DNA from: Diphasiastrum complanatum
Taxonomy: Eukaryota; Streptophyta; Lycopodiopsida; Lycopodiales; Lycopodiaceae
Direction: 5' to 3'
NCBI GenBank assembly: GCA_029204225.1
Contig: CM055100.1
Span: 17,809,650-17,873,649, forward strand
DNA length: 64,000 nucleotides
Shown here: piece by piece, positions 5,608 through 63,243 of the stretch
Layout: every line of letters begins with the position of its first letter
How positions within the stretch are numbered: the first letter of the stretch is position 1
Notes under the pieces: model-generated
Told to the model about the DNA's origin: nothing
The model's input: only the letters and a program-made list of their open reading frames with translations
The model's database searches: none
Made by a program: the position numbers and the translations under genes

Positions 5608-6765
5608 GCTCCCTCTCAAAGCATGATAGGTTGACGGCTCTAAGACTGCTCCTCTGTTTCTCGAACAGACCTTTGTTTAAGGCCTTTGTGAAGATGTCAA
5701 CAACCATGCCCTTCATTCCAATGAAATTGGTCTGCAACATCTTCTTTCCAATCAGATCCCTAATTAAGTGGTACTTGATCACAATGTGTTTTGTTCTTGA
5801 GTGAAACACAAGGTCTTTTGTCAGATGTATTGCAGATGTGTTGTCCATCTACAAAACCAGAGGTTCATTCCTCGTTTTGTCTAGTTCGTCAAGGAACTGT
5901 TTGAGCCAAATTATTTCGTTGGCCATCTTTGCTGCTGCAACGTATTCCGCTTCGTAGGATGACTGAGCTACAATGGTTTTCTTCTTCCAGACCTAGAGAA
6001 TTGTTGCTCCTGACGCAATGGTGTATCTTCTTGAGACATTTTTACAATCGTCCTTGAGGGATGCCCAACTAGCATCACTGTAGAAAAGCATCTGAAACCC
6101 TGCAATACCACAAACCATAATCTTTTGTTAATTGAAGATATTGCAAAATTCGTTTTGTAATCTTCCAATGTGTCGAGCCTGGATTCGTGCAAAATTGGCT
6201 CATCCTGAACACTGCATAATCAATGTCAGGACATGTGTTATCTGTAAGGTATATCAACGATCCTATCAGTTTCCTATATGGTGTGAGCTGCATCAATTCT
6301 CTCTCTTCTTCAGTCCTCAAACAATTTTCGTTCGTCAAAACTATTCTTGCAAGCATTGGAGTATTCGCTTCTTTGCAATTCAGCATCCCAAAATCTTCTA
6401 GGATTTTCTGGGTGTATCTGGACTGATGAAGGTACAATTTACCTCCCTCATAGTCCCTGTTAATCTGCAAGCCAAGGTAACTCATAACTTCTCCCAGATC
6501 TACAATCTCGAAATGTTTCGAAATATCATTCTTCACTTCAGCAATCAACTTCTCACTCTTGCAGAGTATCAGAGTGTCATCCACATACACAGTCACAATG
6601 ATGATCTTACCATCTGTAATTCTCACATACACATTGGAATCACCCATTAGTGGCTTGAATCCCAAGGATTTCAGGGCTTGATCTCTCTTTTTGTACCATT
6701 GCCGAGCTGACTGCTTCAGACTATAGATACTCCTATGCATTCTGCATGCATAATTAGAAAGTAAA
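5608..6765 (-). pseudogene. Ty1/copia RT and RNase H relic, 5' truncated (family A)
   Basis: The minus strand gives a long RT frame from about 6755 to 6075. It opens in mid-palm with CRMHRSIYSLKQSARQWY, continues through the catalytic YVDDT at about 6575-6555, DLGEVMSYLGL and TPYRKLIGSLIYL, and reaches the RNase H start. A frameshift near 6075 leads to YSDASWASL and then AEYVAAAK. The C-terminal frame at 5848-5620 has MDNTSAIHLTKD and FHSRTKHI. Integrase and the RT N-terminus are missing because the element is joined head to head with the plus-strand copia at about 6770-6793. The family-A LTR follows directly. Confidence 0.92.
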
Positions 6766-6793
6766 TTCGAGACATATCTTGGGAGAAGCATAG

Positions 6794-8227
6794 CACATGG
6801 GACTTAGTAGAACCACCAGTTGGCAAGAAACCCATTGGTTGCAAATGGGTATACAAGACTAAGTACCATGCAGATGGAAGTATAGCAAAGCACAAGGAAA
6901 GATTGGTGATCAAAGGGTATGCACAAAGTAAAGGCATCGACTATGAGGAGACCGTTGCGCCGGTATGTAAGTGGAATACTCTACGTCTACTTGTTGCTTT
7001 AGCTTCACATTTTGGTTGGCCTTTGCATCAGATGGATGTGAAATCTGCTTTTCTAAATGGTGAGTTAGAAGCAGAGGTGTTCATGGATCAACCTGAAGGC
7101 TTTGTAACGAAGGGACAGCAAAATAAAGTATGTCGCTTGAAGAAAGCGCTTTATGGTCTTAAACAGACACCACGTGCGTGGTATAGCAAGATTGATGCCT
7201 ACTTTTGTTCAAAGGAGATGGTGAGAACACATTCTGATCCAAATCTATATGTCTTATGCTTTGATGGTATGGTTTCTTTGATTGCTCTTTATGTTGATGA
7301 CTTGATTATAACGGGAAATAATCAAGAGATGATAGATATGATCAAGAAAGACCTCATGGAACAATTCGAGATGACAGATCTCAGCCTGATGTATTGTTGC
7401 CTTGGAGTAGAGGTGTGGCAAAAAAGACACGAAGTGGGTTTAACACAAGTGAAATATGTCAAAGAGTTGCTGCACAGGTTTAGGTTGCAGGATTGCAAAC
7501 CAGTGAATACTCATATTGAACCAGGTAAAAAGCTTTTGAAGCTTGATGAGTCATAGTCATTTGATGCTATACTGTATAGACAGTTAGTAGGGAGCTTGAT
7601 TTACCTTATCACGACTAGACCAGACTATATGCTACGTTGTTGGCATTGTAAGTCAGTTTATGGCAGCACCTACGGAAATGCATTTTTAGGCAACTAAATG
7701 CATTTTGCATTATGTGAAAGGAACTTCAGATTATGGCTTGATTTACAGAAAGCATCATGGTTTACCTGAGTTGTGTGGCTATGTGGATGCGGATTGGGGA
7801 GGTGACTATGATGATCGTAGATCCACCACAATGTATTCCAGTTTTGTGGTAGTTGCTTTTTCTGGTCTAGTAACAATTGCTCTTTCCACCACAGAAGTAG
7901 AGCATTAAGGCAATGTGTAGTGCAGCACAGGAAGCTATATGGTTGAGACAAATCTTAGAAGAAGTTGGCATGAAACAGAAAAATCCCACAACATTACATA
8001 GCGACAGTCAGAGTGGCAATCAGCTAGCAAATAATTTAGTGTTCCATGCGAGAACTAAACACATTGAGATTCGGTATCACTTTATACATGAGAGGCTACT
8101 GAGTCGTGAAATTCATGTTGTTCATTGTAGCACAAAAGAACAACTAGCTGATATTTTCACTAAGCCACTTGTTGGAGAAAAGTTTGATAAGTTTAGATCA
8201 AAGCTTTATGTACTTAAAGTTTGTTGA
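6794..8227 (+). pseudogene. Ty1/copia RT and RNase H relic, 5' truncated (family B)
   Basis: The plus strand starts with TWDLVEPPVGKKPIGCKWVY, the usual copia RT N-terminus. It continues through [28 protein letters not shown] and the catalytic LYVDDLIITGN at about 7290-7320 to a stop at 7554-7556. After a frameshift the RNase H gives GYVDADWGGDYDDRRS (about 7780), ALSTTEVEH (about 7890), and then DSQSGNQLA, FHARTKHIEIRYHFI and ADIFTKPL up to the stop at 8227. A frameshift and stop break the RNase H near 7905. It is followed by a polypurine tract and LTR in the same orientation. Gag, protease and integrase are gone. Confidence 0.93.
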
Positions 8228-8271
8228 CTTTAAAGCTATGTATATGACTGTATAAAAAGTAGACTCTACTT

Positions 8272-8283
8272 TAAGGGAGAGAG
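8272..8283 (+). promoter_or_regulatory. Polypurine tract of the family-B copia
   Basis: The purine run aagggagagag lies immediately upstream of the LTR and 45 bp after the pol stop. This is the expected plus-strand primer site. Confidence 0.7.
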
Positions 8284-8554
8284 TTATAATTAAAGTAGAA
8301 TCACTGTGCTATGTACTGTGGGTCCTATCAGTTGATAAGGATCAGTTGGCCTCGCCACGAGGCAAGTCGACGGGACACGTGTCCCGCCAACGGCAACCTG
8401 GGTCATGCATGGGTTTCTTGAGTGAACAACTATATGTACAGTGTAATTTTATTTTGAGAAATACAGTTGCTATGTGAGCTTGTTGTGGAGAGTGTTTTTT
8501 GTCTGTGTTACTATATAGCATGATCTGTGTTCCTGTTCGAAGCAAATTCTAAGT
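8284..8554 (+). mobile_element. Family-B copia 3' LTR (about 271 bp)
   Basis: It matches the reverse complement of 15633-15907 along its length at about 90 percent by eye, including ggcaagtcgacgggacac and tgggtcatgcatgggtt. The start ttataattaaagtag has lost the usual TG; the end is ...caaattctaagt. The opposite copy is followed directly by a primer-binding site, which fixes the LTR end. Confidence 0.85.
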
Positions 8555-8559
8555 ATATC

Positions 8560-9095
8560 GTCCTCAGAATCTGCATCTAATGTCGATAAAAAATCTTGCA
8601 AGTCAATTTTCCTCTGTTGTTGACGAGTTGACGACCATGGTCGACTCATTAATCCAAGTCGTTCATTCAGTATGGCTATAGTTGACTTTCATAGATGATT
8701 GGTCATTGTTAACTCAAAATTAAAAGCCAAAACATCTACATCTTGTAAATTTAAATCATCAAGCCTCGGCTGGTTCTTTTGCAATCTTTTTCTCTTGCCC
8801 TTTGGATCTACTTGCAACATTTCAAGTTCATACCTTCCCAAAAAAACATTCGTTGAAGTGGTGCACAACCAATGGACACGTAGTACTTTTGTTTGATTGC
8901 TATTTTGAATGAAACCAAGTACTTTTGCAATCCAAAATGGATGTCCTTCATTGTTTTCAAGTTAGAAGTGCAACAAGACTTCCAATTTGAATTTCATTGA
9001 GATCACTGTGCCACTTCATTTTTGCAGCTTTTACACTTTGCCTATTCTTCCTTGAGCCCACATAAATTTCACGTTCTTCACCTTGCACACAAGAA
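8560..9095 (-). pseudogene. C-terminal part of the DDE-like transposase relic
   Basis: The minus strand, read from about 9090 down, gives a segment with 'IGSLVALL', then GHPFWIAKVLGFIQN, 'VHW' and FLGRYELEMLQVD, and ends in an acidic tail near 8570. A 'PFWIAKV ... VHW ... GRY' pattern is typical of the small C-terminal BAH/chromo-like domain in the DDE-like family whose core lies at 9745-11270 on the same strand. The two parts are separated by an inserted plus-strand LTR fragment (9100-9513). At the other end the gene abuts the family-B LTR. Confidence 0.6.
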
Positions 9096-9099
9096 GTCT

Positions 9100-9501
9100 G
9101 CTAGTAAGCGAGACAGTTTATGATTTGTGAGAGACAAAGATTCTCTCACGCTGACGCGCTGGGTGAATCTAGAACACAGCACACAAGAAATTCATTGATA
9201 ATACAATAGATGTAATGCAGATGACTTTCTTATCTTTAATGTTATTGAATGCTTGATTGTCCGATTGTTATCTGTTCGTAATTAACTGTTTACTATTCTA
9301 ATTTTTCATGCTAGTTTTTACCTTGTAGATGCTAAAACAAATTACAACATAGGTCTCAGTGTCTGTCAATGCTTTGGAGGATTGTAGATATGTTATAGCA
9401 GGTAGTTGGCAGCAGACAACATCAAACTCACATCCAAACAACTGTCATCAGTGGTATTAGAGCGTTTGACATTTTGGATATATACAAATTTTTATCAACA
9501 G
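9100..9501 (+). mobile_element. Family-A-type LTR fragment, 5' truncated
   Basis: The start 'gtctgctagtaagcgagac' and the block 'gattctctcacg' match the family-A solo LTR (29772-30563, reverse complement). The 3' end ...tttttatcaaca is followed at once by a primer-binding site, so this is the tail of a 5' LTR with a short leader up to roughly 9740. It splits the minus-strand DDE-like gene. No coding part of the inserted element remains. Confidence 0.75.
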
Positions 9502-9513
9502 TGGTATCAGAGC
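9452..9513 (+). promoter_or_regulatory. Two primer-binding-site-like sequences, 50 bp apart
   Basis: tggtattagagc lies at 9452-9463 inside the LTR end, and tggtatcagagc at 9502-9513 directly after it. The second is the normal initiator-Met tRNA complement. The first is also present, slightly changed, inside the solo LTR at 29772-30563 (minus strand, tggtattggagc), so the internal copy is a family trait. Confidence 0.8.
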
Positions 9514-9744
9514 CTCAGGCTCCAAGAAATCATTATCTCGAGGGAGATTTGAAGGTTCGACAATTGTAGTTGAAGTTCCTAATTTCTAAGGCCAGTGAAA
9601 CTCTTCAGTTGTTGATGCGTGTTCAAGATTGAGCAAACTGATTTTTTGTTTCTCAAAAAAGTCCAACCACCAATGCTGATCAAACTCATCAAAACATTGA
9701 AAAACTGCTTGAATACTTGATTCCAAAAAATTTAACGAGGCAAA

Positions 9745-11270
9745 TGGGTCAATCAACCTCACGATGCCCTCTTTGTGTTTTTTGTTCTTTTAGCATGGAC
9801 TTCAAGAGAGACAACGTAGCAAGCTTGATTTGACCAGAAGGCATTTTGAGCAGAAATATTCCTTCAACAGGTAACCATGAAACTGAACTTGAAAATTGTT
9901 TGCCCCATAGCAACGTGATGTCAGTTTCATTGCATTTGATTTTGAACTTATGTTGAAAGCTAATATCATTAATAGTAGCAACACAACGATTTGTTTCATT
10001 GGACGTCTTAATATATTCACGAAATCCAAATGTGTGCCTAATTAACGACACATTTGGCTTTGGCAGGTATGATTCTTCAACAATGCTCTGAAGCACTGAA
10101 AAAAAAATGCCTTCTTGCATCTTAGTCTTTTGGAAAAACAACTAAACATCTGATCAATTTGATCATGGGTGTGACCCACCGACAAAAATCCTATTTTTAT
10201 TTTTTTGAATTTTTTTTTTCTACCAATATCGATAAGTAAGCCAGTACAGTTTGATTTTTATTTTCCCTAGCAGTGTTATCAAATTGCAAATATAGTATTT
10301 TTGGAAGATTATCACCAAATTCGCAAATTATCTTTTGTACAATGGTTATGGTCAAATTTGGATCGTTTCAAACATTGAAATAATTGAAAAATTATTTTGA
10401 CTCCAATGTGCCATTAAACACAAGTGCTCCAACGAGATGAATCTAAATAAAATCTGCCTCGTTCAAATTTTTTGGCACTCTAACAAAATGAGGCAACGTC
10501 ATCGTTTCTTCTGATCCATGCCATCGATGACAAGGCCCAAATACTTTTGTGGACATTCCAAGCATTTCTTTTGATGTTTTGCCAATTTTTGTCTTTCAAT
10601 TATTTGTTGATCTCTGTGCACTTGAAGCGCAGCATCCACTACAAAATGTAACAATTAAAATATTTCAAAAAAATTAAGATAATATAATAACATTAATGAT
10701 TTGAAAATTTAAAAACAAAAAAAATAAAATTTTTAAAGTATTGAAAGTAAATTAATTTCTATCTTTCTCATCATTGGTCTTTGCTAATTGTTTGACAGAT
10801 TTTAACAACTCCCAAGTCGAACAAACTGGCATTCGTGATTTTTTAGGAATCTTCACCAAACCAAAATCTCTCTTCCAAATCCTAAGAAAATATGAGTTAC
10901 TTAAATAGGCAACATTTTTTGTCTTAGCGAACTCCTTGTACATCAAAAATATCTCCAATTTTGTAAAATTATTTGGCAAGTGAAAATATATTGAATTTGG
11001 TAGTTTCTCTCCATGCACATCCACAAAATGCTTTAGCCAAGTCGTAGCATTCAAAGCATCCGGAGACACGGTTCTACCTTGCAATGATTCTTGCAATGTT
11101 GGATCTTTTTGAAGTCGTGTGTGCATTCTTTGAAGGCGTGAATTTCCAATTGCATGAACAGCTTTGTAGGCTTTTCGACAAACCTCCGTTGTATTTAAGA
11201 ATAGTGTGATGTAAGGATTTCTTGAAATCACAACTTCTCCTATTTGAAGAGTTGTAATATTCCATTCAAG
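9745..11270 (-). pseudogene. DDE-like transposase gene relic (N-terminus and core)
   Basis: The minus strand opens near 11260 with a 159-codon block (11231-10752) containing VCRKAYKAVHAIGNSRLQ, HLPNNFTKLEIF and FLRIWKRDFGLVKIPKKSR. It then runs through stops and frameshifts with the acidic-core motifs LVIDGMDQKK (10528-10505), DNTARENKNQ (10284-10255) and VGHTHDQIDQMF (about 10183-10148). A last block (10141-9749) has PKPNVSLIRHTFGFREYI and FQHKFKIKCNE. I recognise the pattern 'DGMDQ ... LDN..REN(K)N ... GHTH..IDQ.F' as a transposase-like family of uncertain name found in several eukaryotic lineages; metal-binding acids at these sites are inferred. It is dead: several stops, one LTR insertion. 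A methyltransferase relic starts about 95 bp away on the other strand. Confidence 0.75.
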
Positions 11271-11359
11271 TTGGCAGTCGGCTTTTATTTGTTTTAATTT
11301 TTAAATAGTCTATGCTTAGCATAGATCATTGTTTAAAATAATAATCTATTTTTTTTTGT
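11271..11359. other. Spacer between divergent relics, with a possible 3' splice site
   Basis: A T-rich run ending ...tttttttttgtaag at about 11349-11362 precedes the methyltransferase reading frame. It could be a polypyrimidine tract and acceptor, which would make the methyltransferase block a last exon. No inverted terminal repeat was found here. Confidence 0.35.
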
Positions 11360-12010
11360 AAGTACAAGCCCAACATTCGCAATGCTGGTGGTGCACGGTT
11401 GTGCAACGAGATTGAATACATAACCATTGGTTATTATTCATTGGATGGCAAACGTTTGATACTACACTATAACACCACCGGACTGACCAGCTTTGGGAAC
11501 TTTATCCAAATTCCAACAGTAAAAGAAAGTTGAAAAATCCGATGACAAGTTCTGTGGCTTGTCCTCATCAAAAGCCACAACAATTAATTAAACATCTTAT
11601 TGAAATTTTTGCACCCAGCAGATTGGGTTTTGGATTTGTTTAGCGGTAGCGGCACTACAAGAACATACGCTGTGCAAAAAGGTAGACATGTTGCTGCTGT
11701 AGAATTATATTCTAGCTTAGTAAAATTTATAAGAATACGAATGAAGTCTATCTCAGTTTTGCCAGATGAATTAGTTGAAGTAGGGAAGTCTATAGAATCT
11801 GACGAAGACTCTATAATTCCATTGTCGAAAGAACCACAACCTCTCGCTAGTGGAAAAGTGGGTGATACAGGGGAGTTTGCAAATGTACTACCTCAAGACT
11901 ATAATGTTGTAACTGTAGAGGAAACCGTGGAAGAGGTTGTCATTGTTTCTATTGAGGCTCCTCTAGAAAATCCCAAAGATGTCAATGACCTTGATGACTT
12001 TTGGGAATAG
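11360..12010 (+). pseudogene. N4/N6-type DNA methyltransferase relic, 5' incomplete
   Basis: Three frames join to one family pattern. About 11364-11535 gives 'N.GG.RL.NEIEYITIGYYS' and a further 35 residues. About 11533-11612 gives SSVACPHQKPQQLIKHLIEI, the 'KP..LI..LI' motif. From about 11612 comes DWVLDLFSGSGTT, then GRHVAAVE, which are the S-adenosylmethionine-binding motif I and the next acidic strand end. Motif I at the C-terminal side, behind the KP motif, fits the permuted (beta-type) prokaryotic DNA methylases. The catalytic (D/S)PP(Y/W) motif should lie upstream and is not present. The open frame from 11600 begins at a TTG, so it is not a true start. The C-terminus is a 60-residue acidic tail ending DLDDFWE. 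Two frameshifts show it is a pseudogene. Confidence 0.72.
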
Positions 12011-12214: not shown

Positions 12215-12318
12215 AGCATTCGTCCCTACGTTTACTATTTGCATATGCAACTGCTTATGACCTCATGATCCACATTGTGGACAAGAAGACAGCCTTTTTG
12301 CATGGTGAGTTAGATGAA
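12215..12318 (+). pseudogene. Short copia RT fragment
   Basis: The plus strand reads LRLLFAYATAYDLMIHIVDK followed by KTAFLHGELDE, a classic copia RT segment ('H.VDVKTAFLHG'). It ends exactly where a minus-strand copia integrase begins (about 12318), giving a tail-to-tail junction with only a few ambiguous bases. Confidence 0.85.
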
Positions 12319-13735
12319 TTGACTCCATCTCCTCTCCCATGGCCTTGACCCAAATGTCATCATCCTTCACTTCACCATAAGTCGAAGGTTCTTTGCTCTG
12401 AATAATGCTAGATAAGAGAGCATAATTTGTTTCATACCTTTCAGGTTGTGTCTTCTCTCTTGTTGATCTTTGTAGCTCTACCTGGCTAGATGATTCTGGA
12501 AAGTCATCCATGTTGCGGCTCTCCAACAATCTCTCAAACCACTTAGAGAGCTTTCTGTCAGGTGATCGACTTTCTGGTGAAAATGTATCCCACGGTACAT
12601 CCTTCTCCTTGTGTATGTCACCCGCAACTTCAATTCTTCTTGCACCAAAAGGTTTGTCTCTACCTCTTAAACCTGTCTCTTGAGGTTGAGTAGTAGTATC
12701 TTGAGATGTATCCTCATGTTCATCACTTGGAAGGTCAATGAATGGATCATCATCAGAAGGCATCATCACTATACCATCTTTCCCACTAGATGTGTCTATC
12801 TTCTCAGAATTCTCCTCTTCATACATCTTGGATTCATCAAAGATAACATCACGGCTTACATGGATTTTGTTTTCCACTGGATCAAAACATCTATAGCCCT
12901 TCACACGTTCATCATATCCTAGGAATATACACTTGATAGCTTTCACATCAAGTTTACGTCTCTCTTCCTTAGAAATGTGTACAAAGGCCTTACATCCAAA
13001 GATTCGCAAGTGGTTCACCTTTGGCTTTTTCTTCGTGAATGCTTCCTCAGGTGTTATCTTTGGTATGGCAATGGTAGGACTTCTATTTTGAAGATAGACT
13101 ACCGTACTGCATGCTGCTGACCAAAAATCTTTTGGTAGTTTCATCTCAGCTAGCATAGATCTGGCACTTTTCACAATCATACGATTCTTGCGCTCAGCTA
13201 CACCATTGAGAGTAGGAGTATGAGCTTGCGTAAATTGTCTTTTAATCCCACATTGATTACAAAGATCATTGAAGTCATTAGACTTGTACTCACCTCCACT
13301 ATCTGATCTTAGGACTTTGATCTTCCTACCTGTCTGATTTTTGACCAATGCTTTGAAGCTCTTGAAATTGTCAAATGCATCCAATTTCTTTTTCAAGAAG
13401 TAGATCCACGTCTTACGTGACATATCATCAATAAAGGTCATGAAATAGAAGGCTTTACCTAAGGACATGGTTCTGATAGGCCCACATAAATATGTGTGGA
13501 TCAAATCTAGGATGTTCTTTGCCCTTGCAACACCACCTTTATTGAACTTCCCTTGATGGTGCTTCCCATATACACATGATTCACACATCAATTTCAATTG
13601 GTCTTCTATAGTAGGCAATCCTGTTACCATCTCCAATTTCCTCATCAAACTGAGGCTTCCCAAGTTCAAGTGACCAAGCCTCTTATGCCACAAGTTGGGG
13701 GCATCTTGAAGCTTGCAGGTTGCTTGGAGGACGTT
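12319..13735 (-). pseudogene. Ty1/copia integrase relic with a long open frame
   Basis: The minus strand holds an uninterrupted frame. The pre-integrase zinc motif reads LWHKRLGHLNLGSLSLM with CESC...GK (about 13690-13570). The core has FIDDMSRKTWIYFLK, RSDSGGEY and VAERKNRMI, supplying the D-D-E acids. After these come DFWSAACSTVVYLQNRSP, LRIFGCKAFVHI and IFLGY, then the C-terminal SRDVIFDE. A charged linker ends at WVKAMGEEMESI, where RT would start. RT is absent because the sequence meets an inverted RT fragment. About 450 codons without a stop suggests a recent insertion. The extra N-terminal residues beyond about 13735 are not copia. Confidence 0.92.
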
Positions 13736-13777
13736 TGTCCTTGGATTTGAGGACTTCCTCACCTCTACTTGTAAAAG

Positions 13778-13789
13778 TGGTATCAGAGC
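13778..13789 (+). promoter_or_regulatory. Primer-binding site (initiator-Met tRNA type), plus strand
   Basis: tggtatcagagc is preceded by tacttgtaaaag. It marks the 3' end of a former plus-strand LTR that is no longer recognisable upstream, where integrase of the other orientation lies. Confidence 0.6.
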
Positions 13790-14880
13790 TAGACAAAGGA
13801 TGGTAACCTTTCTAACCTTCTTCAAGTTCTATTAAGATCACCAACTAGATTTTTTTTGGGGAAGATTATAGGCTTTTCTAGTTGTAGGAAGCTTGTAGTT
13901 GAAGTACCCAATGAATCTAATTCTCTTTGGAAGATAGTAGTGATGCTTATAGAATTGTTTAGGGGCTGAGCTAGCCTCAAGTATTCACCACCCAACCATA
14001 GCTAGATCCAAGCTCCAAGCAAGACCTATCTAGCACCCCCTTGCTAACCATAAACAAATCACAAGCATACCACAACATTCCATAGCATTCTCAAGATCCA
14101 AACCCTACTTATGTCCCATACCATAAGCAAGATCCAAACCTCAAGCATACTACCACAAGAAAGCACTCTACACACTAGTAGCAACACTAGAGCATAAGCA
14201 AAGCAAACAAGAGAGATCTCCCCCTCCCAATGGGCGCCCTACTACCCTATCCCTGGCCCATGGACCCCTCCAATGCACTATGGAGTTCCATGCTCATCCA
14301 ATGAGAGAGAGAGAAGCCTAGGGGAGTTAAAGAATCTCCAAGAGCCTCCATAGGCGAATGTCAAGAGACTCCTTCCATAACCTATGACTTTTTGAATGCC
14401 TTTCTTATGGGAGTTGGGAGCTCATTGGACACTTTAGAAAGGCGCCCTCCTACTAGGTCCCATTGCCCAAGTTGTGCAAGTATACTTTAGTCCTAGACCA
14501 ACAAAGTGATATGGTTCAAGGTTGAGGCCCAAGGTTTAGAAAAATAGTCATCCAATGACTTTCTAGCACCTCTCTAGGTTCCATACCTCCATCCAAGGTA
14601 TAGACACCTATTTGCCCTTAACCAAGGACACTAGTACCTTAATCTAAGGCACTTATCCTTAATACTAAGGATACCCCTTATCCAAGGGTCACGTGACTCC
14701 ATACCTCCAACTAAGGTATAGTCACTTGTCTGCCCTTATCTAAAGGCACATACCCTTAATCCTAAGGGTACCTTGCCATTTAGCCCCCAACACTAAATGG
14801 ACTAATAGGGGCCTGAAGTACTGCTAGTTACATAGGTATGTAACACTAATACACGGAGTCGCCACCCTCCTCCACATCGC
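13790..14880. other. Non-coding repeat-derived DNA with a 118-bp tandem duplication
   Basis: No coding similarity. A unit beginning ccatacctcca at 14581 recurs at 14699 with 'aaggtatag.cac' and 'gcccttaa', two diverged copies at a 118-bp period. The base composition (CCA/TCC-rich) differs from its surroundings. Confidence 0.55.
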
Positions 14881-14957
14881 GCGATCTGCCTGCGGGCTCT
14901 TCACGGCCTCTTCTCCACTTTCAAGCTTCCAAGCTTGCTAGCTATGAAATCCCTCAA

Positions 14958-15619
<662 letters not shown>

Positions 15620-15632
15620 GGCTCTGATACCA
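15620..15632 (-). promoter_or_regulatory. Primer-binding site of the minus-strand family-B copia
   Basis: The minus strand reads tggtatcagagcc, complementary to the plant initiator-Met tRNA 3' end, directly after the LTR end. Confidence 0.85.
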
Positions 15633-15907
15633 ACTTAGAATTTGCATCGAACAGGAACACAGATCATGCTACACAGTAACACAGACAGAAAGCACTCTCC
15701 ACAACAAGCTCACATAGCAACTGTATTTCTCAAAATGAAATTACACTATACATATAGTTGTTCACTCAGGCAACCCATGCATGACCCAGGTCGCCGTTGG
15801 TGGGACGCGTGTCCCGTCGACTTGCCTCGTGGCGAGACCAACTGATCCTTATCAACTGATAGGACCCACAGTAGAGTAGCACAATGATTCTACTTTAATT
15901 CTAATTG
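15633..15907 (-). mobile_element. Family-B copia 5' LTR (minus orientation)
   Basis: This is the reverse complement of 8284-8554 with small differences. The adjacent primer-binding site shows that it is the 5' LTR of an element running toward lower coordinates, or a remnant of one. Confidence 0.85.
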
Positions 15908-16133
15908 ATATGCCAATGGACTCTGATAAAGAACACGAGTCTTTCACCTCATCGACTAAAAACGAGTGTTCAAAATATGTCAAGTTCTGAATTGAGAGAC
16001 ATCAGTGAAAATTCCTTAGAAAATGTACTTTGAAAAACATATATACACATTTTTACTTATATTGTCCCACAGTCTGCATATTTAAACTGTTTGTCGCAAT
16101 AGTCTGCATATTTACATGTAAAATTAGACAGTC

Positions 16134-40265: not shown

Positions 40266-40841
40266 GAATGGGTGTTCTCTGTGGGCTGATTCTGTGATCG
40301 ATCTGTATGGGCGAGGCCAAGCAAAGGTCCTTTGGTAGGACTATCTCAAAAGGGGACCTTGTTTTTGTTACTTGTTAGTAAACCTGCCTAAGTGTCTTGC
40401 TTGTATGTATTCGTGGTGATTCTTAGTACTTGTGTGCTTTGCCTGGTTTGCATGATTGCTTGTGATACAAGGAGCTGATGGCTTGAGAAGGAACCTTTCT
40501 TTTGAAGGCTGATACCATCAAACAAAGAGGACTATAGAATCTGTGGGGCGGATTCGCAATTCAAGTACTAGCACGTGAACGACAACGAAACGACTCGATG
40601 TTTGCAAAGGATGGATGGGTAGCTTGTTACTTGGGTTAGTTTCATTTGTGACAATATCCACCAGACCATTAGAGAAAATTTGGCCTTGGAAAGGGCCCTA
40701 TAAGGATTGCCACGTAGGATGACAATTTTTTGGCAATGTAAAATAGTAAAATAAAGTCTTTTTCTGCCTGCAGTCCTGCCCACACAGTCTTCGATGATTA
40801 ACTATTATGTGGGTAGTATACTCTGTGACTGAAAAAAAAAA

Positions 40842-41322
40842 ATCATAACTTTTGAACGGAAAATCGGATTGAAATGATTATGGTGCCATTAGAAAGCCCT
40901 CGACGAGAGCTTTTCAATGGCATCCAAGATCACAAGTTTTGAGCCACGCTGTAGAAGTTATGGCCAGTCAAAGTTTTGGTCGGTCAACACTTGGTCAACC
41001 CGATATCTCTTTCAAGCGCAGTTGACCGGTTTTACCCAGTCAAAACGACCTCGACTCTCATATTTTATTTCATGACACTTTGTGTTTTCCAAAAGTATTC
41101 AATTGATAAATCATCGGTTTGACCGGGTCAAACTGGTCAACTGCGCTTGAAAGAGATATTGGATTGACCAAGTGTTGACCGACCAAAACTTTGACTGGCC
41201 ATAACTTCTTCACCGTAGCTTGGAAATGGGTCATGTTCAATGTCATTGAAAAGCTCTCTTTGAAGGCTTTCTAATGGCACTGTAATCGTCTCAATCCGAG
41301 TTGTTGTTCAAAATTTACACTG
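40842..41322. repeat. Long near-perfect palindrome (two 200-bp arms)
   Basis: The left arm 40842-41047 and right arm 41114-41322 are reverse complements with an inner loop of about 66 bp. The inner 85 bp (ggccagtcaaagttttggtc ... caagcgcagttgacc) match at over 90 percent; the outer 120 bp (cattagaaagcc.tc ... gaagttatgg) match at about 75 percent. A transcript would fold into a long hairpin. A copy of the outer arm in single form occurs in the small element at about 59800-59930, and a further partial copy at 39220-39310. Confidence 0.9.
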
Positions 41323-41555
41323 TTTTTCTTGCTGAGTTGCATACTATACTACAAATAAAATGGCTTATATACGGGCTGCCCCCAACGCAAAATTATAGTT
41401 ATTTTAAAAAGAAAAGAAAATCAATTTGAAGGAGCTACATTACGTAAATTTCAAATTTGAGTGTTTTGATTGGACCATGTGGAAGAAACTTTTGAGAAAA
41501 AAAATAAAAGGTATCTTTTTTAAAGGCCCCTTTTGTGCTCAAATTTTCTCTAATG

Positions 41556-58959: not shown

Positions 58960-60105
58960 TGTCAGAAATGGTGAACTCCTCCAACTTTGTCGCAGCACGA
59001 ACAAGACACGAAGGTCGAACGAGAACAATTCGCGACAGTCAACGTGTCTTTGACTCGAAGCACGAACAATTCGCGAATTAATCGCGAATCGCAAACACAC
59101 CTCCAAGACCGCAAACCGCAAAAGGGACGCGAAACGAAAACTACGAAAAGAAACGAAAAGAACGAAAGCAAACGGGAGATAACGAATCAGACGAAGAAAA
59201 ATCTTTCGCGCTGTCAGCTGGCAGCTCAGCGGGCTTCATGCCCAGCTGAAACGAGTAGCAACGACGGAGACTAACTAACTAGTTGATTAGCGTTAACTAG
59301 TCATGTGATTCGACGTTTAGTTATCTTGTAAACTCCACATAGTGGAGGTATCAATGATCCTCTCTGGATCATAACAAGAAGAGGTGAATACAGAGATCTG
59401 TAAGAGACAGAGAGAGACGTAGCGAATAGAGTACGAAAGAAAAGACACCATAGCTGAGCGTGAAAGTCTGCCAACGAGCAGAACATAGCGAAAGAGTAGA
59501 ATGTCATTCCACCAACGAACGAGACACTGACGAATTCACTCTAAATTAAAACTGATAATACAGTCACTCTATTTTTGTACATCTCGTCTTGTGTCATGAT
59601 TGCTAGAATAAAATATGTTTAGTGATGCATGGTCGAGTGTCTGGGATCCTTTAAGGGCTTCCCATTAGAGGAGTTCTAAATCCAAAAAAGGCCCTTTGTA
59701 AAGATTCTTTTTATATTTTCTCTCAAATTTTTCTTACACATGGACCAATCAAAGCACTTTGAATCCACATTTTGATTCCATACTAAAAATGGCATAACTT
59801 TTTAGTAGTAAGTCCAAATTTAGCGAAGTTTGGTGCATTGGAAAGCGCTCAACAAGACTTTCCAATGATATGTTACATGACATACTTTTGAACTACGATT
59901 AAGAAGTTATGGCAAGTCAAAAGTATTAGTATTATAATATTTTAATAATAAAAAAGGCATCTTGCACGAATTCTTAAAGGGTCTTTTTGGAACTCAAAGC
60001 TCCTCTAATGGCACGAAAAGATAATTTAAAGACATAAAATTATTCGCGATAAAGAAGACGAAGAGGACGAATATGAATCAGTCCCACACACACGCTTCCG
60101 CGACA
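58960..60105 (+). mobile_element. 5' LTR of the 59-63 kb copia (with insertion)
   Basis: It begins TGTCAGAAATGG. The sequence up to 59662 plus 60012-60035 matches the 3' LTR. Bases 60036-60105 (70 bp, ending ccgcgaca) lie before the primer site but are absent after the 3' LTR. Either the 3' LTR is shortened or these bases belong to the leader. The first 300 bp are rich in gcgaa/acgaa words as in the LTRs at 4.6 and 23.5 kb. Confidence 0.85.
59663..60011. mobile_element. Small CATTAG inverted-repeat element (349 bp) inside the 5' LTR
   Basis: It starts cattagaggag and ends ctcctctaatg, 11-bp perfect terminal inverted repeats inside about 45-bp imperfect ones (both ends continue to 'aaaaagg.ccctttgtaa'). 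The 3' LTR has the empty site ggcttcc|gcacg at 63221/63222. Comparison shows a clean insertion with no target-site duplication. The interior (59790-59935) is one arm of the palindrome at 40842-41322. Non-coding. It is non-autonomous, MITE-like. Confidence 0.88.
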
Positions 60106-62518: not shown

Positions 62519-63243
62519 TGTCAGAAATGGTGAACTCCTGCAACTTTGTCGCAGCACGAACAAGACACGAAGGTCGAACGAGAACAATTCGCTACAGTCA
62601 ACATGTCTCTGACTCGAAGCACAAACAATTTACAAATTAATCACGAATCACAAACACACCTCCAGGACCACAAACCACAAAAGGGACGCGAAACAAAAAC
62701 TACAAAAAGAAACGAAAAGAACGAAAGCAAATGGGAGATAACGAATCAGACAAAGAACAATATTTCGCGCTGCCAACTGGCAGCTCAACGGGCTTCACGC
62801 CCAGCTGAAACGAGTAGCAACGACAGAGACTAACTAACTAGTTGATTAGTGTTAACTAGTCATGTGATTCGACATTTAGCTATCTTGTAAACTCCACATA
62901 GTGGAGGTATAAACGATCCTCTCTGGATCATAACAAGAAGAGGTGAATACGGATATCTACAAGAGACAGAGACAGATGTAGCGAATAGAGTAAGAAAGAA
63001 AAGACACCATAGCTATGCATGAAAGTCTACCAACGAGTAGAACACAGCAAAAGAGTAGAATGTCATTCCGCCAACGAGCGAGACACTGACGAATTCACTC
63101 TAAATTAAAACTGATAATACTTTCACTCTATTTTTGTACATCTCGACTTGTATCATGATTGCTAGAATAAAATATGTTCTGTGATGCGTGGTCGAGTGTC
63201 TGGGATCCTGTAAGGGCTTCCGCACGAAAAGATAATCTAAAGA
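62519..63243 (+). mobile_element. 3' LTR of the 59-63 kb copia
   Basis: TGTCAGAAATGG to ...gataatctaaaga, followed by the target duplication cacct. It is about 92 percent identical to the 5' LTR outside the insertion. Many of the differences are G in the 5' copy against A here, often at former CpG. It shows the uninterrupted site of the 349-bp insertion. Confidence 0.92.

What the first reader, a model, noticed from the sequence alone, without database searches (positions are those of the whole stretch)
8560..12010. DNA methyltransferase relic beside a DDE-like transposase relic: possible methylase-bearing transposon
Seen: on the plus strand, frames that give a KP..LI..LI motif, VLDLFSGSGTT and GRHVAAVE; on the minus strand, about 95 bp away, a decayed gene with DGMDQ, DN..RENKN and GHTH..IDQ.F. 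Known: permuted N4/N6 DNA methylases are mainly prokaryotic, and some eukaryotic mobile elements have captured DNA-modifying enzymes. Inference: the two may be divergently arranged genes of one DNA transposon that marks its own DNA. A nested insertion of one into the other is the main alternative; a possible splice acceptor right before the methylase block fits either.
Basis: partly seen in the sequence, partly recalled or inferred. Interest (0 to 1): 0.88.

Follow-up and report, generated by a model that had tools for sequence, protein, structure and literature searches.

The report
Methylase-carrying plant DNA transposon
The two decayed genes are the remains of one copy of a large repeat family in this plant genome: a DNA transposon that carries, head to head, a transposase-like gene and a bacterial-type DNA methyltransferase gene, so this jumping gene may chemically mark DNA.

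Summary
The minus-strand relic is DUF7869 (PF25273) and the plus-strand relic is a beta-class N6/N4 DNA methylase (PF01555). Both are repeat families in the window's own 1.74-Gb genome. There they are two divergent genes of one 6-9 kb element with 11-bp terminal inverted repeats (AACAYGATGAC) and 4-bp target-site duplications (5 of 5 independent insertions with both ends readable). Among 150 DUF7869 hits and 150 methylase exon-2 hits, 22 pairs lie within 10 kb: 19 head-to-head, 3 same-strand, none tail-to-tail; shifted positions give 1.3 on average. The methylase gene has an upstream region whose predicted fold resembles ParB. Both genes show purifying selection. The fern Ceratopteris has relatives of both (for the methylase gene, its ParB-like half). 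The window copy is dead: a deletion removed methylase exons 1-4 and motif IV and fused the genes at 11201, which explains the apparent '95 bp'; copia elements then broke and partly inverted it. That DUF7869 is the transposase rests on a moderate fold match and on linkage. What the methylase does is untested, and its motif IV is DIPY, not DPPY.

The parts
8555..9089 (-). 3' part of the DUF7869 gene (C-terminal region; possibly BAH-like)
   Evidence: 84-87% DNA identity to all seven extended copies, L025 only to 8909; DUF relatives align to the same region; BAH chains among the Foldseek hits of a relative's model, aligned range not printed
9090..9515 (.). insert absent from the seven extended copies, with TGGTATTAGAGC/TGGTATCAGAGC primer-binding-site-like motifs: piece of an LTR retrotransposon (motif reading recalled)
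   Evidence: element homology stops at 9089 and resumes at 9516; sequence
9516..11201 (-). DUF7869 gene body, decayed (frameshifts and stops), transposase candidate; DGMDQ at 10514-10528, DNTARENKN at 10254-10280, GHTHDQIDQMF at 10144-10176
   Evidence: PF25273 E 3.5e-16 and 4e-14; reading frames; 79-91% DNA identity to copies L015, L017, L020, L021, L028
11201..11201 (.). internal deletion junction: DUF7869 5' exon joined to methylase exon 5; about 2.8 kb (versus L022) to 4.7 kb (versus L021) missing, including methylase exons 1-4 and motif IV
   Evidence: L022 6286 to 9092, L017 5982 to 9065, L015 5707 to 10106, L028 5923 to 10501, L021 5784 to 10502
11201..11290 (+). remnant of methylase exon 5, the part after motif IV
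   Evidence: 79-96% identity to L015, L017, L021, L022, L028; translation matches exon 5 of other copies
11291..11362 (+). presumed intron between methylase exons 5 and 6 (start approximate), acceptor AG at 11361-11362
   Evidence: read by eye from sequence and frames; a pattern search for the borders in other copies matched nothing
11363..12010 (+). methylase exon 6 (HQKPQQLI..VLDLFSGSGTT), acidic tail and stop DDFWE*; frameshifted between about 11533 and 11588
   Evidence: PF01555 E 5.9e-7; 150 related exons listed of 2269 first-look candidates in the same genome
12011..12215 (+). element 3' non-coding part; homology ends shortly before a minus-strand copia reading frame
   Evidence: L017 match to 12215, L022 to 12132; copia frame 12263-13828 on minus
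15907..16065 (-). displaced and inverted piece of the element's left end (next to the DUF7869 3' side in other copies)
   Evidence: 83-88% identity, inverted, to L015, L017, L020-L022, L025, L028; flanked by the inverted copia LTR copy 15633-15904 matching 8284-8554 at 94%

Best explanation
The locus is a dead, deleted and rearranged copy of a two-gene cut-and-paste-type DNA transposon. SHOWN: members run left TIR - DUF7869 gene (minus strand) - about 2 kb - methylase gene (plus strand, at least six coding blocks, the last two a whole N6_N4 methylase domain) - right TIR, 6-9 kb, with 11-bp TIRs and 4-bp target-site duplications; both genes show purifying selection. PREDICTED: the second coding block has a ParB/sulfiredoxin-like fold. 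INFERRED: DUF7869 is the transposase (RNase-H-like predicted fold with Asp residues in the DDE order), perhaps with a BAH-like chromatin reader at its end. INFERRED, most likely function: the ParB-like region loads the methylase onto element DNA and the enzyme puts N6-methyladenine (less likely N4-methylcytosine) on it, so that element copies, or freshly excised or inserted ends, are marked, which would tune transposase action or counter host silencing. I put about 0.95 on one transposon carrying both genes, 0.85 on DUF7869 being its transposase, 0.65 on the methylase being catalytically active, and 0.4 on self-marking as its role.
Confidence: 0.78

Rival explanations
1. One gene was inserted into the other by chance (nested elements, or an element inside a captured host gene); the pairing in the window is local.
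For: The window holds nested elements, and the two relics abut abruptly at 11201.
Against: The same head-to-head pair recurs across the genome far above chance between shared ends with duplications; the abrupt contact is a deletion relative to other copies.
Confidence: 0.03
2. The methylase no longer methylates. The ParB-like region is what the element needs: a DNA-bound clamp that gathers transposase or holds the ends, with the methylase fold kept as a DNA- or SAM-binding scaffold.
For: Motif IV is DIPY (16), DISY (1) or lost (1) in the 18 copies that cover it, never DPPY; the distant relatives found match mainly the ParB-like half.
Against: Exons 5 and 6 are kept between subfamilies with dS above 1 and dN/dS near 0.16 for exon 6; DIPY also stands in a divergent relative, P0156, so it is a kept variant and not decay.
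Confidence: 0.25
3. The methylase acts on host DNA rather than on the element: it changes host chromatin at insertion sites or interferes with host 5mC-based silencing.
For: Precedents of transposons with epigenetic genes: TET/JBP and SET in DNA transposons (PMC12730594, passages), DNMTs in retrotransposons (PMC5890265, passages).
Against: Nothing here tests it; a ParB-like fold would suggest site-specific loading, which fits a cis target better.
Confidence: 0.25
4. Bacterial contamination or a recent bacterial gene.
For: PF01555 is mainly prokaryotic (recalled).
Against: 150 listed divergent copies in the assembly, most on contigs C1-C24, with intron-like breaks in the copies read; the phage and plasmid relatives listed are only about 24-28% identical.
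Confidence: 0.005
5. DUF7869 is a second cargo gene, and an unlinked transposase moves the element.
For: Fold evidence for DUF7869 is moderate; a deletion derivative with the left end 1.6 kb from the methylase exon also has both ends and a TATA duplication, so the family can probably be moved in trans.
Against: Reading frames of 90 aa or more in the methylase-side 6.2 kb of four copies showed no third conserved gene; DUF7869 has a predicted RNase-H-like core with Asp residues in the right order.
Confidence: 0.08

Closest known systems
DIRS retrotransposons with Dam-like adenine methyltransferase (as described in PMC5890265, passages read)
   Same: A eukaryotic mobile element that encodes a bacterial-type adenine DNA methylase.
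   Different: DIRS are retrotransposons with a tyrosine recombinase; here it is a DNA transposon with TIRs, a DUF7869 gene and a beta-class (N6_N4_Mtase) enzyme with a ParB-like region.
[quoted passage not shown]
   Same: DNA transposons that encode a transposase and a DNA methyltransferase.
   Different: Those sit in giant-virus genomes, carry a Mariner transposase plus an endonuclease, and a C5-cytosine or Methyltransf_26 enzyme; here a nuclear plant family with DUF7869 and no endonuclease noticed.
Fungal DNA transposons with TET/JBP dioxygenase (PMC12730594, passages read)
   Same: DNA transposon with an added DNA-base-modifying enzyme, discussed as acting on epigenetic silencing.
   Different: Oxidation of 5mC, not methylation; other transposase families; fungi.
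KnitGypsy-Dnmt3 and Symbiodinium DNMT retrotransposons (PMC5890265, passages read)
   Same: Charophyte or dinoflagellate elements that captured a DNA methyltransferase; purifying selection reported for KnitGypsy-Dnmt3.
   Different: C5-cytosine methyltransferases in retrotransposons.
Bacterial CcrM/RsrI-type beta-class N6-adenine methylases
   Same: Permuted motif order and the whole PF01555 domain.
   Different: Motif IV DIPY; further predicted domains before it; introns (read by eye); about 25% identity to the phage and plasmid relatives listed.

Membership tests
Beta-class N6_N4 DNA methylase (PF01555) | Match over the whole domain above the curated cut-off, motif IV before motif I | tested here: met
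   L021 exons 5+6, one copy without stops: 47.9 bits against cut-off 26.7, positions 3-217 of 221; L011 exons 5+6: 51.6 bits, best stretch 120-206; the window's exon 6 alone 30.1 bits
Beta-class N6_N4 DNA methylase (PF01555) | Catalytic tetrad [D/N/S]PP[Y/F/W] (recalled) | tested here: not met
   Of 18 of 20 copies covering the stretch, 16 read DIPY, L022 DISY, L016 lost it; L018 and L025 do not cover it; DIPY also in P0156; absent from the window copy by deletion
ParB/sulfiredoxin superfamily | ParB N-domain fold | tested here: inconclusive
DDE/D (RNase-H-like) transposases | RNase-H-like fold with acidic triad in order beta1, beta4, following helix | tested here: inconclusive
Terminal-inverted-repeat DNA transposon | TIRs and target-site duplication of fixed length at both ends of multiple copies | tested here: met
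   AACAYGATGAC at both ends (variants in L017 and L051/L052); 4-bp TSD TTCC, AACT, AACT, AAAA, TATA in 5 of 5 independent insertions with both ends readable
KDZ (Kyakuja-Dileera-Zisupton) transposons | KDZ transposase domain | tested here: inconclusive
   No KDZ-type Pfam domain in four DUF7869 proteins, but distant kinship was not tested by profile comparison
DIRS elements | Reverse transcriptase and tyrosine recombinase in the element | tested here: inconclusive
   None noticed by eye among frames of 90 aa or more in parts of four copies; not searched by profile
DUF7869 (PF25273) | Curated-cut-off match | tested here: met
   59.8 and 53.1 bits against 26; 338 relatives at E 1e-5 or better, 120 listed, those listed carrying PF25273

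The most novel reading that the evidence does not exclude
A eukaryotic DNA transposon uses a ParB-type, possibly CTP-switched, DNA clamp fused to an adenine methylase to load at its own ends or internal sites and write a heritable methyl mark over itself. It would be a self-coded epigenetic system independent of the host's 5mC, with the transposase's BAH-like end reading host chromatin.
Probability: 0.25. Interest if true: 0.93.

Novelty: new variant of a known kind. Interest (0 to 1): 0.78.

Why it matters
Whether land plants write functional 6mA or 4mC in nuclear DNA is contested (recalled). Here is a large repeat family in a plant, probably a lycophyte, that carries a bacterial-type methylase under strong constraint; a fern has relatives of both genes (for the methylase gene, its ParB-like half). 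It gives a specific enzyme and a specific place to look for the mark. It also makes DUF7869, a family found from charophytes to animals and named in no paper of the library searched, a candidate transposase family. It adds adenine-type methylation plus a possible ParB-type loader to the short list of epigenetic tools that transposons have taken up.

Tried and rejected
Nested insertion: rejected. Contamination: rejected. My first DUF7869 query carried about 36 residues that are in fact antisense of methylase exon 5. Eight of the 20 loci (L009-L014, L016, L027) gave 'DUF' hits to that piece alone, which are not DUF7869 and were not counted; one search was made with that query, and most of its relatives that align near the start do so from about residue 26-41 on. 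Protein search with the padded window methylase found nothing; with five genome copies aligned it found 52. Of those, 34 (P0122-P0155) show neither motif IV nor motif I, and 33 of the 34 show a motif of the ParB-like half. So the fusion itself outside this genome is inferred from exon order (P0122 runs into the start of exon 5) and not shown. No relatives of the genome are held, so gene order in ferns could not be tested. The host is probably Diphasiastrum complanatum: gene models P0156/P0157 of that species carry element exons, and contig C23 is 42,491,762 bases against 42,495,900 for the P0156 contig, close but not equal; a direct test with P0156 did not complete. A DUF-centred fetch of 8-12 loci was not possible, so list-against-list linkage was used instead; at least three of its 19 head-to-head pairs (C88/C17, C1006/C9, C3699/C7) look like duplicate contigs. 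L020 and L021 are duplicates (98.6%). Copies without a usable duplication: L025, L028, and the pairs L047/L048 and L049/L050. A regular-expression search for the exon 5/6 intron borders matched nothing, so intron borders are by eye. Selection: single pairs of methylase exon 6 range up to dN/dS 1.24. In one search, rows 14 and 16 (a Pyrococcus hypothetical protein, a free serine kinase) are of the ParB/sulfiredoxin fold by recall only. Literature: 'DUF7869' is in 0 of 5.39 million held papers; searches listed no paper whose title describes such an element; Repbase was not searchable, and an entry may exist there. PMC4738411 (recalled as relevant) is not held.
Full report
WHAT IS IN THE WINDOW. 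The plus-strand relic is the C-terminal exon of an N6_N4 DNA methylase (PF01555, E 5.9e-7), and the minus-strand relic is DUF7869 (PF25273, E 3.5e-16 and 4e-14 for two separate frames). The window lies at C9:17809650-17873649 of a 1.74-Gb genome in 5176 contigs.

BOTH GENES ARE REPEATS. A search of that genome with the 140-aa methylase exon gave 150 scored hits out of 2269 first-look candidates, the non-self ones 61-81% identical. DUF7869 gave 150 of 3451 candidates, and exon 2 of the methylase gene gave 150 of 2380. The tool calls such counts lower bounds; the candidates beyond 150 were not scored.

ONE ELEMENT. I fetched 20 ten-kb loci around methylase hits and extended seven of them, chosen because homology ran to the upstream edge or DUF7869 was in sight. 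All seven carry DUF7869 on one strand and the methylase on the other, head to head, in one repeat with abrupt ends. The ends read AACAYGATGAC inward from both sides. Directly outside lie 4-bp duplications: TTCC (L015), AACT (L020/L021, one insertion duplicated), AACT (L022, different flanks), AAAA (L017) and, from a later small fetch, TATA (L051/L052). This is 5 of 5 independent insertions with both ends readable. Element lengths from those ends are 8794 bp (L015), 9084 (L020), 7465 (L017) and 6206 (L022) (ends). The 31-bp left end has 683 matches at up to two mismatches and none for the reversed pattern.

LINKAGE FROM INDEPENDENT LISTS. The three hit lists were ranked independently of each other. 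DUF7869 against exon 2: 22 pairs within 10 kb, 19 head-to-head, 3 same-strand, 0 tail-to-tail; 200 shifted sets averaged 1.3, maximum 5. DUF7869 against exon 6: 6 pairs, all head-to-head; shifted mean 0.55, maximum 2. Exon 2 against exon 6: 19 pairs, 17 on the same strand in the expected order. Left ends (100 listed of 683) against subsets of these lists, mostly those on contigs C1-C10: 14 of 15 DUF pairs at +1.2 to +1.8 kb on the opposite strand, 12 of 12 exon-2 pairs and 6 of 6 exon-6 pairs on the same strand. Some pairs on small contigs are duplicates of chromosomal ones.

SELECTION. Nei-Gojobori dN/dS (own script): methylase exon 6, 21 sequences, 180 usable of 210 pairs (pairs with dS under 0.1, undefined dS or under 80 codons were dropped), median 0.19, range 0.10-1.24; between the two subfamilies 108 pairs, median 0.16 with median dS 1.16. 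Exon 5 median 0.20 (98 pairs), exon 2 0.15 (36 pairs), DUF N exon 0.10 (15 pairs), DUF core 0.33 (9 pairs), DUF C-terminal 0.16 (12 pairs). The window copy against its own subfamily gives 0.54-0.86 (8 pairs), as expected of a decaying copy. So both proteins were kept functional while the family spread.

HISTORY OF THE WINDOW COPY. Comparison with the extended copies gives: an LTR-retrotransposon piece at 9090-9515; a deletion at 11201 that removed 2.8-4.7 kb, including methylase exons 1-4 and motif IV; loss of the right end after 12215, shortly before a minus-strand copia frame; and a displaced, inverted piece of the left end at 15907-16065 behind a copia LTR that is an inverted repeat of the one at 8284-8554. 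The simplest account of the last is an inversion between the two copia LTRs (inference). The closest matches in the window to the 31-base left end and the 12-base right end have 11 and 2 mismatches, none at a fitting place.

MECHANISM. Shown: one transposon, two constrained genes, a whole methylase domain. Inferred: DUF7869 cuts and joins the ends; the ParB-like region loads the methylase on DNA; methylation of the element either times transposition (as adenine methylation does for IS10; reference title seen in PMC3627910) or protects it from silencing. Closest printed precedents, read as passages only: PMC3627910 (Mariner elements in giant viruses with methyltransferases), PMC5890265 (Dam-like enzymes in DIRS, DNMTs in retrotransposons), PMC12730594 (TET/JBP in fungal DNA transposons). 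The passages seen of PMC12695648 (6mA across eukaryotes) treat MT-A70 enzymes, with no transposon-borne N6_N4 methylase in them. No held paper contains 'DUF7869'.

VERDICT. The remaining uncertainty lies in function, not in existence.

Noticed in passing
6765-8554 (+) and 12263-15904 (-): Two copia-type elements in opposite orientation whose LTR pieces (8284-8554, 15633-15904) are 94% identical inverted repeats and bracket an apparently inverted segment.
   Followed up: partly
40813-41352: A 540-bp near-palindrome (76% match to its own reverse complement): possible foldback element.
   Followed up: no
58960-59662 and 62519-63221: 703-bp direct repeats, 92% identical, 2.9 kb apart: possibly LTRs of a non-autonomous element.
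   Followed up: no
G000:C7:53613174-53616000 (L051, L052): Deletion derivative with left end only 1.6 kb from methylase exon 6 and a TATA duplication: apparently mobilised with no room for its own DUF7869 gene.
   Followed up: partly
L022, L026: Copies with differing internal deletions in or next to DUF7869: the family makes non-autonomous derivatives.
   Followed up: partly
P0156, P0157 (Diphasiastrum complanatum gene models): Methylase exons of this family annotated as the ends of a cytochrome P450 and an ion-channel gene: exonisation or annotation error.
   Followed up: no
11308-11325 and introns of several copies (L009-L017): A short palindrome, TATGCTTAGCATA, appears to recur in the introns of the methylase gene; seen by eye in translations, not counted.
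   Followed up: no
L025 (two methylase and two DUF7869 places in one stretch): Tandem or nested copies of the element.
   Followed up: no
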